Source: a virus. Taken from it: DNA of 39,623 bases. The stretch covers positions 1 through 39,623 of IMG/VR virus record IMGVR_UViG_3300012361_000062; one strand, written 5' to 3'. This document shows, in pieces, positions 34,244-34,361 of the stretch (positions are counted from its first letter, which is position 1; each line of letters opens with the position of its first letter). The position numbers and the translations under genes are program-made. The notes below the pieces were generated by a model. That model saw nothing but the letters and a program-made list of their open reading frames with translations. It searched no databases and was not told the DNA's origin.

Positions 34244-34361
34244 GTGGCGTAAGTCTTAGATACTTCGGCATGGAGCAGTGTGGTAGCTCGTCGGGTTCAT
34301 ACCCCGAAGGTCGGGGGTTCAAATCCCTCTGCCGGCTTTTCTGCTAAGACTGATTGTTCCC
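34244..34361 (+). ncRNA. Y-like RNA unit 4 with full tRNA-Met-like module (118 nt)
   Basis: Opens GTGGCGTAA, ends TTGTTCCC. The stem AGTCTTAG/CTAAGACT is perfect (8 bp). Inside is an almost complete tRNA: CGGCA/TGCCG acceptor part, D arm GAGC-AGTGTGGTA-GCTC, anticodon arm TCGGG-TTCATAC-CCCGA (CAT at 34298-34300), T arm GGGGG-TTCAAAT-CCCTC. A tRNA finder could call it tRNA-Met, but the top of the acceptor does not pair, and it is embedded in the longer stem. It ends 16 bases before the ro start codon. Confidence 0.82.

What the first reader, a model, noticed from the sequence alone, without database searches (positions are those of the whole stretch)
34263..34337. Unit 4 contains an almost intact tRNA-Met-like fold inside the Y-like stem
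Seen: D, anticodon (loop TTCATAC, anticodon CAT) and T arms are complete; only five acceptor pairs form (CGGCA/TGCCG), and the outer AGTCTTAG/CTAAGACT stem encloses it. Units 1-3 keep only parts (anticodon-like loops CTGTTAA and CTTGTAC, T-like arms TTCGACC and TTCAAAT). Inference: decoys for tRNA-binding or tRNA-cutting enzymes, or substrates for tRNA-modifying enzymes.
Basis: partly seen in the sequence, partly recalled or inferred. Interest (0 to 1): 0.8.

Follow-up and report, generated by a model that had tools for sequence, protein, structure and literature searches.

The report
Phage Y RNA carrying initiator-tRNA mimic
Next to its gene for a Ro60-like RNA-binding protein, this phage carries four small 'Y RNA' units, one of which holds a nearly complete copy of the start-codon tRNA fixed end-on to the predicted protein-binding stem, a rarer layout of a known kind of RNA that imitates tRNA.

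Summary
Window 34264-34337 matches Rfam tRNA at 53 bits (E 9.5e-9), sits inside an 8-bp stem, and is the last of four units directly before a Ro60/Rsr (TROVE) gene. All four units share a box GTGGYG...TACTTC...TGTTCCC, which recurs in Ro60-encoding phages.

Two corrections. The fold is initiator-type (GGG/CCC anticodon stem, CAU; 91% identical to proteobacterial initiator genes over positions 8-63). Its acceptor has six pairs, one of them U-G.

The unusual part is topology. In most relatives the tRNA-like module is circularly permuted, with the Y helix in place of the anticodon stem, as in Rfam YrlA. Unit 4 keeps normal tRNA order and joins the Y helix through its acceptor. Among 330 distinct viral Y-boxes this end-on layout occurred seven times (fMet, Gln twice, Pro, Lys, Ile-like, Leu-like) and never in shuffles.

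Best reading: a Ro60-tethered tRNA mimic, not a decoding tRNA (U73, no CCA, ends buried in the Y stem). The partner is unknown. A decoy against anticodon nucleases is possible but untested. New variant of a known kind.

The parts
33899..33927 (+). Candidate promoter of the array: TTGACA, 17-nt spacer holding the near-dyad GGCCAATGGTC (33910-33920), weak -10 TAGCTT
   Evidence: TTGAC lies 37-45 nt upstream of the first Y-box in 20 of 73 distinct arrays, against 0-2 of 73 in seven other 9-nt bins; dyad of the form GRCC-N-GGTC in window, L001 and L002. The generic sigma-70 scan found nothing.
33940..33996 (+). Y RNA unit 1 (short, no T arm)
   Evidence: Y-box 33940-33962 with 1 mismatch, TGTTCCC 33990-33996; fold -19.9 kcal/mol, z -1.96
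34010..34126 (+). Y RNA unit 2 (permuted-type tRNA-like module: mini anticodon loop CTTGTAC, T arm, GAAA-capped stem, D-position hairpin)
   Evidence: Y-box 34010-34032, 0 mismatches; aligned with 52 permuted phage units; sub-threshold tRNA match 24.7 bits
34148..34230 (+). Y RNA unit 3 (T arm plus simple hairpin)
   Evidence: Y-box 34148-34170, 0 mismatches; TGTTCCC 34224-34230
34240..34365 (+). Y RNA unit 4 whole: terminal stem 34240-34244/34361-34365, Y-box 34244-34266, Y stem 34252-34259/34344-34351, TGTTCCC 34355-34361
34264..34337 (+). Initiator-type tRNA-like cloverleaf in normal order, docked on the Y stem by its acceptor; acceptor 34264-34270/34330-34336, D stem 34273-34276/34286-34289, anticodon stem 34291-34295/34303-34307, T stem 34313-34317/34325-34329
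34296..34302 (+). Anticodon loop TTCATAC (CAT), T at position 32 and C at 38 instead of the usual C32/A38
   Evidence: All 15 bacterial CAT tRNAs examined have CTCATAA; 17 of 22 viral ones do
34378..35694 (+). Ro60/Rsr ortholog (TROVE and Ro60 vWA domains)
   Evidence: Pfam TROVE 3.4e-15, vWA_Ro60 3e-9; phrog_850 5.9e-47; NCBIfam Rsr 5.9e-8 but 31.6 bits against a cut-off of 900

Best explanation
The array 33940-34365 encodes four Y RNAs that partner the Ro60/Rsr protein encoded directly downstream. In unit 4 the effector end is an initiator-tRNA-derived cloverleaf in normal order; its acceptor 5' strand shares the UUC of the Y-box, so the tRNA fold continues end-on from the helix predicted to be bound by Ro60. 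Inferred mechanism: Ro60 holds the Y helix, and the tRNA-shaped end, with exposed elbow and anticodon arm but buried acceptor, either docks a tRNA-recognising partner (nuclease such as PNPase, modifying enzyme) onto Ro60 or competes for it. It does not act as a decoding tRNA. Shown computationally: the fold, the Y-box and stems, the Ro60 neighbour, initiator ancestry, recurrence in other phages. Inferred: expression, Ro60 binding, partner, effect.
For: tRNA fold E 9.5e-9; cloverleaf inside the Y stem. Ro60 gene next door. The same box in 66 viral stretches with a 70-100 nt insert; TROVE found in 6 of 6 and 7 of 9 further records tested. Covariation in 53 aligned permuted units: 22 of 26 pairs with double changes, including outer stem, Y stem, T, permuted acceptor and D stems. 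Initiator features: 91% identity over positions 8-63 to genes of two proteobacteria, GGG/CCC anticodon stem. Same end-on layout in 7 of 330 Y-boxes, 0 in 20 shuffle rounds. Between the two related Gln units acceptor pair 2-71 changes C-G to T-A and two single changes in stems keep pairing. Against decoding: T73 and no CCA, whereas 12 of 12 complete bacterial initiator genes end in CCA and 11 of 12 have A73, and this phage's own tRNA-Thr and tRNA-Gly both end in CCA.
Against: No expression or binding data. Unit 4 itself has no ortholog: L001, L002, L007 and L008, the closest Ro60 relatives, lack it, so conservation of this copy cannot be tested. Rfam YrlA does not match any window unit up to E 10. 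Folding z-scores are unremarkable. TROVE was not found in two of the seven end-on records, L336 and L314.
Confidence: 0.75

Rival explanations
1. Anticodon-nuclease decoy: the tethered initiator-like anticodon arm, altered at positions 32 and 38, binds and titrates a host tRNase such as a VapC that cuts initiator tRNA between 38 and 39, resisting cleavage.
For: VapC of Shigella and Salmonella cuts tRNA-fMet between A38 and C39 (passage in PMC4105405). Unit 4 has C38, and 5 of 22 viral CAT tRNAs (unit 4 counted among the 22) but 0 of 15 bacterial ones have altered loops. van den Berg et al. 2023 argue that phage tRNAs carry anticodon-loop changes against tRNases (passages). Hughes et al. 2020 suggest YrlA might inhibit an anticodon nuclease (passage).
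Against: No host, no nuclease and no data; the 32/38 point is post hoc; the same loop TTCATAC occurs in another phage tRNA outside any Y-box (L053), so it is not specific to the Y context; permuted relatives mostly carry other anticodons.
Confidence: 0.15
2. Functional phage initiator tRNA that merely lies in the Y array and is processed out of it.
For: Complete cloverleaf and initiator-type core; CCA can be added post-transcriptionally (established knowledge).
Against: T73, no encoded CCA, only six acceptor pairs with a U-G, acceptor 5' strand overlapping the conserved Y-box, perfect 8-bp enclosing stem.
Confidence: 0.08
3. Decayed tRNA gene that landed in a Y RNA gene, with no function of its own.
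For: Present only in this phage among the close Ro60 relatives examined.
Against: All arms pair; the same end-on layout with other tRNA types recurs in other phages, with compensatory change in one pair.
Confidence: 0.1
4. Ribosome targeting: the GGG/CCC initiator anticodon stem lets the Ro60 particle sit at the small-subunit P site or sequester initiation factors.
For: GGG/CCC pairs and CAU kept; the role of these pairs in P-site selection is established knowledge, recalled.
Against: The acceptor end is buried and cannot be charged or formylated; the other end-on units are elongator types.
Confidence: 0.04

Closest known systems
YrlA-type bacterial Y RNA (Rfam RF02553; Ro60/Rsr partner)
   Same: Ro60-adjacent; basal stem plus tRNA-like D, T and acceptor elements (review passage PMC8394870); YrlA model matches permuted units in the phage relatives (best 54.7 bits, E 1.3e-9)
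   Different: Unit 4 is not permuted, has a complete 5-bp anticodon arm, joins the Y helix by the acceptor, and has no YrlA match up to E 10; the relatives' matches are also below the gathering score of 69
Initiator tRNA-fMet
   Same: Positions 8-63 91% identical to L269/L270; GGG/CCC anticodon stem; CAU; 1-72 mismatch
   Different: T73, no CCA, T32/C38, different acceptor and T stem, buried in the Y helix
Phage tRNAs with anticodon-loop changes (van den Berg et al. 2023, PMC10264068)
   Same: Phage-borne tRNA fold with altered anticodon loop
   Different: Those are proposed as working replacement tRNAs; unit 4 is fused to a Y RNA

Membership tests
Y RNA (Ro60-associated) | Encoded beside a Ro60/Rsr gene | tested here: met
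   Unit 4 ends 12 bases before the Ro60 start codon at 34378
Y RNA (Ro60-associated) | Conserved Ro60-binding stem and box shared with other Ro60-linked units | tested here: met
   Box GTGGYG...TACTTC...TGTTCCC with 0 mismatches; box and stems conserved/covarying in relatives
Y RNA (Ro60-associated) | Physical binding to Ro60 | not testable with these tools
   Needs pull-down or gel shift
YrlA (RF02553) | Reaches the covariance model's gathering score (69 bits) | tested here: not met
   No YrlA match in 33880-34400 up to E 10
YrlA (RF02553) | Permuted order T arm, acceptor, D arm | tested here: not met
   Unit 4 is acceptor, D, anticodon, T, acceptor; unit 2 follows the permuted order
Functional initiator tRNA | GGG/CCC pairs in the anticodon stem and CAU anticodon | tested here: met
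Functional initiator tRNA | A73 and CCA end | tested here: not met
   T73 followed by TTT; 11 of 12 complete bacterial initiator genes have A73 and 12 of 12 encode CCA
Functional initiator tRNA | Aminoacylation and formylation | not testable with these tools
   Needs biochemistry

The most novel reading that the evidence does not exclude
Phages repeatedly fuse complete tRNAs end-on to Ro60 Y RNAs, making a distinct class of anticodon-displaying, non-chargeable tRNA baits; in this phage the bait is an initiator tRNA whose loop is altered at the site where initiator-specific tRNases cut, so the Ro60 particle works as a counter-defence sponge.
Probability: 0.12. Interest if true: 0.85.

Novelty: new variant of a known kind. 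Interest (0 to 1): 0.55.

Why it matters
It shows that the tRNA-like end of phage Y RNAs need not be permuted. The Y helix can replace the anticodon stem (common), join at the acceptor (unit 4 and six others) or, in a few cases seen by eye, join elsewhere. A shape kept while the attachment point moves suggests that partners read the folded tRNA. Unit 4 and the permuted units differ in which arms are free, so comparing them would show which arm a partner needs.

Tried and rejected
Uniqueness of unit 4: patterns requiring the exact Y-box first suggested it was unique. A relaxed pattern and a cloverleaf scan showed six more end-on cases, so uniqueness is rejected. L010 (only hit) is an ordinary tRNA array without Ro60 match. 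L313 is an ordinary tRNA-Asn beside a chance box (Y stem 4 bp) and was excluded. L122 and L022 have late T arms but no D or anticodon arm.

The first permuted/unpermuted test (76 of 94 T-arm units called permuted, 16 unclear, 2 called normal order) uses a criterion, at least 6 of 7 pairs anywhere downstream, that chance meets often; I rely on the covariation instead. A stricter docking-mode script was too strict to be useful: 127 of 348 boxes had a T arm but no partner found and only 2 were called permuted.

Lack of CCA in the other end-on units is not informative: many tRNAs of those phages also lack it (105 of 209 ARAGORN calls in 235 loci end in CCA). The sigma-70 scan found no promoter. 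Similarity searches for the Gln and Pro units in named phages gave nothing, nor did a further viral scan beyond L249 and L344. Assembly chimera with a host tRNA gene: disfavoured because acceptor and T stem match no initiator gene examined.

Not read: Chen 2014, Wang 2018, Sim and Wolin 2018, Sim 2020 (not held). I therefore cannot say that end-on docking is undescribed; searches showed no paper describing it, judged from their listings and the passages cited.

Full report
Observation. The window is a 39,623-base virus record. ARAGORN and Rfam both find a tRNA at 34264-34337 (53 bits, E 9.5e-9). The lowest-energy fold of 34238-34366 is a terminal stem, an 8-bp stem AGTCTTAG/CTAAGACT, and a cloverleaf with D, anticodon and T arms and six acceptor pairs. 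Energy z-scores are modest (-0.62 core, -1.41 unit), so the claim rests on the covariance model and on the shared box, not on stability.

Surroundings. Four units at 33940, 34010, 34148 and 34244 share a box of the form GTGGYG-N-A-N(7)-R-N-TACTTC (searched with C at position 5 and G for R: 1, 0, 0, 0 mismatches; at up to 3 mismatches the window has 9 matches, shuffles at most 7) and end in TGTTCCC. The next gene, 34378-35694, is a Ro60/Rsr ortholog (TROVE 3.4e-15, vWA_Ro60 3e-9). Relatives of that protein occur in 6 viral loci (53-79% best-segment identity) and in 86 phage records, led by Xanthomonas phages at 62.6%. Arrays of the same units lie upstream of Ro60 in L001, L002, L003, L004, L006, L007 and L008 and just after it in L005 (4406 and 4485; the gene matches 3001-4257). 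The box with a 70-100 nt insert was found in 66 viral stretches; TROVE was found in 6 of 6 and 7 of 9 records checked. TTGAC lies 37-45 nt upstream of the first box in 20 of 73 distinct arrays, against 0-2 in seven other bins; in the window it is TTGACA at 33899.

What the family looks like. Among 202 viral units with box and Y stem, 108 have no T arm; of 94 with one, a lenient test permuted. An alignment of 53 permuted units shows covariation for the outer stem, Y stem, T stem, an acceptor stem formed by strands after the T arm, and the D stem: 22 of 26 pairs have double changes. Rfam YrlA matches such units in all ten relative loci scanned, from 54.7 bits (E 1.3e-9) downward, below the gathering score of 69. 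In 54 of 73 units a mini anticodon hairpin follows the box (shuffles: mean 17.1, maximum 29), its stem reusing the box's UUC. So the usual phage Y RNA is a circularly permuted tRNA whose anticodon stem is replaced by, or merged with, the Y helix. Window unit 2 belongs to this alignment.

What is different in unit 4. It is in normal order, with acceptor 5' strand TTCGGCA overlapping the box. No YrlA match appears in the window region up to E 10. A scan for complete D-anticodon-T cloverleaves over 330 distinct relaxed boxes found 8; one (L313) is an ordinary tRNA beside a chance box, leaving 7: window (CAT), L249 and L344 (Gln TTG, related to each other), L336 (Pro TGG), L346 (Lys TTT), L341 (Ile-like AAT), L314 (Leu-like TAA). 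Twenty shuffle rounds gave none. TROVE was found in the records of L249, L344, L346 and L341 but not in L336 or L314. Between the L249 and L344 units the D, anticodon and T arms are identical, acceptor pair 2-71 changes C-G to T-A, pair 4-69 G-T to A-T and a Y-stem pair T-G to C-G. End-on docking is thus recurrent, and in one pair of phages pairing is kept through change. Unit 4 itself has no ortholog in the nearest relatives.

Ancestry. All 14 proteobacterial genomes searched had a match; the best over positions 8-63 were 91% identical (L269 Methyloversatilis, L270 Roseateles). Against these the stretch from position 8 to 48 differs in the D loop and at 32 and 38. GGG/CCC is kept. The loop is TTCATAC; all 15 bacterial CAT tRNAs examined and 17 of 22 viral ones have CTCATAA, the exceptions being L024, L053, L292, one in L336, and the window. 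Twelve complete bacterial initiator genes all encode CCA and 11 of 12 have A73; unit 4 has T73 followed by TTT, while this phage's tRNA-Thr (3209) and tRNA-Gly (35849) end in CCA.

Mechanism. Known YrlA tethers Rsr to PNPase through its tRNA-like domain and is modified by DusA and TruB (review passage). By that analogy unit 4 is a Ro60-held tRNA mimic. The acceptor end is buried, so charging is unlikely without processing; elbow and anticodon arm are free. That leaves tethering and competition as the likely modes. VapC cutting between 38 and 39 of initiator tRNA, the argument for loop changes in phage tRNAs, and the suggestion that YrlA could inhibit an anticodon nuclease make the decoy idea reasonable, but it stays at 0.15.

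Papers. Passages only: PMC8394870, PMC7790460, PMC7824862, PMC7765460, PMC8522696, PMC4105405, PMC10264068 (abstract and outline). The primary YrlA papers were not held.

Noticed in passing
L374:6084-6227 and 6339-6477 (Bacteroides phage crAss001): Downstream of the TROVE gene two tRNA-like stretches in normal order (7-bp acceptors GGAGGGA/TCCCTCC and GGGGATG/CATCCCC) appear to carry the Y hairpin in place of the anticodon arm: the same object as the permuted Y RNA with the chain ends at the acceptor instead. Seen by eye.
   Followed up: partly
L380:1971-2102 (halovirus HGTV-1): Annotated as 'tRNA Asp (gtc) + Intron', it contains a Y-box-like hairpin (GTGGAGC...GTTACTTC) at the anticodon position and lies about 3 kb from a TROVE gene, near RtcB; perhaps a Y RNA rather than an intron-bearing tRNA.
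   Followed up: partly
L249 reverse strand about 9575-9860; L021 about 2870-3040: Acceptor halves in neighbouring units pair with each other (GCGGAGA/TCTCCGC, GGGGGAG/CTCCCCC), as if a tRNA were split by a Y hairpin.
   Followed up: partly
L242:4256 and L048:847: Units that start with a D-arm 3' half and end with a D-arm 5' half, as if the Y helix joined at the D loop.
   Followed up: no
permuted units in viral loci: The mini anticodon loops have T at position 36 in 30 of 54 (anticodons such as TGT, GCT, GTT), which would suit ANN-decoding, t6A-type tRNAs; the modification link is recalled.
   Followed up: partly
window 37814-38926: Adenylosuccinate-synthetase-like gene (phrog_1211, 2.4e-58; PurZ model only 42 bits against a cut-off of 300): a possible sign of modified DNA bases.
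   Followed up: partly
window 36104-36907: SPFH/Band 7 gene about 400 bases after Ro60; crAss001 also has an SPFH gene 2.3 kb after its TROVE gene.
   Followed up: no
window 34355-34378: The 3' strand of unit 4's terminal stem (CTCAA) touches the likely ribosome-binding site of Ro60, so unit 4 folding or Ro60 binding could affect its own translation.
   Followed up: no
window 1-280 and about 39520-39623: Both ends of the record lie in the same kind of short coding repeat (SAVGSAVRSAVD...), suggesting that assembly broke in a repeat of a circular or terminally redundant genome.
   Followed up: no
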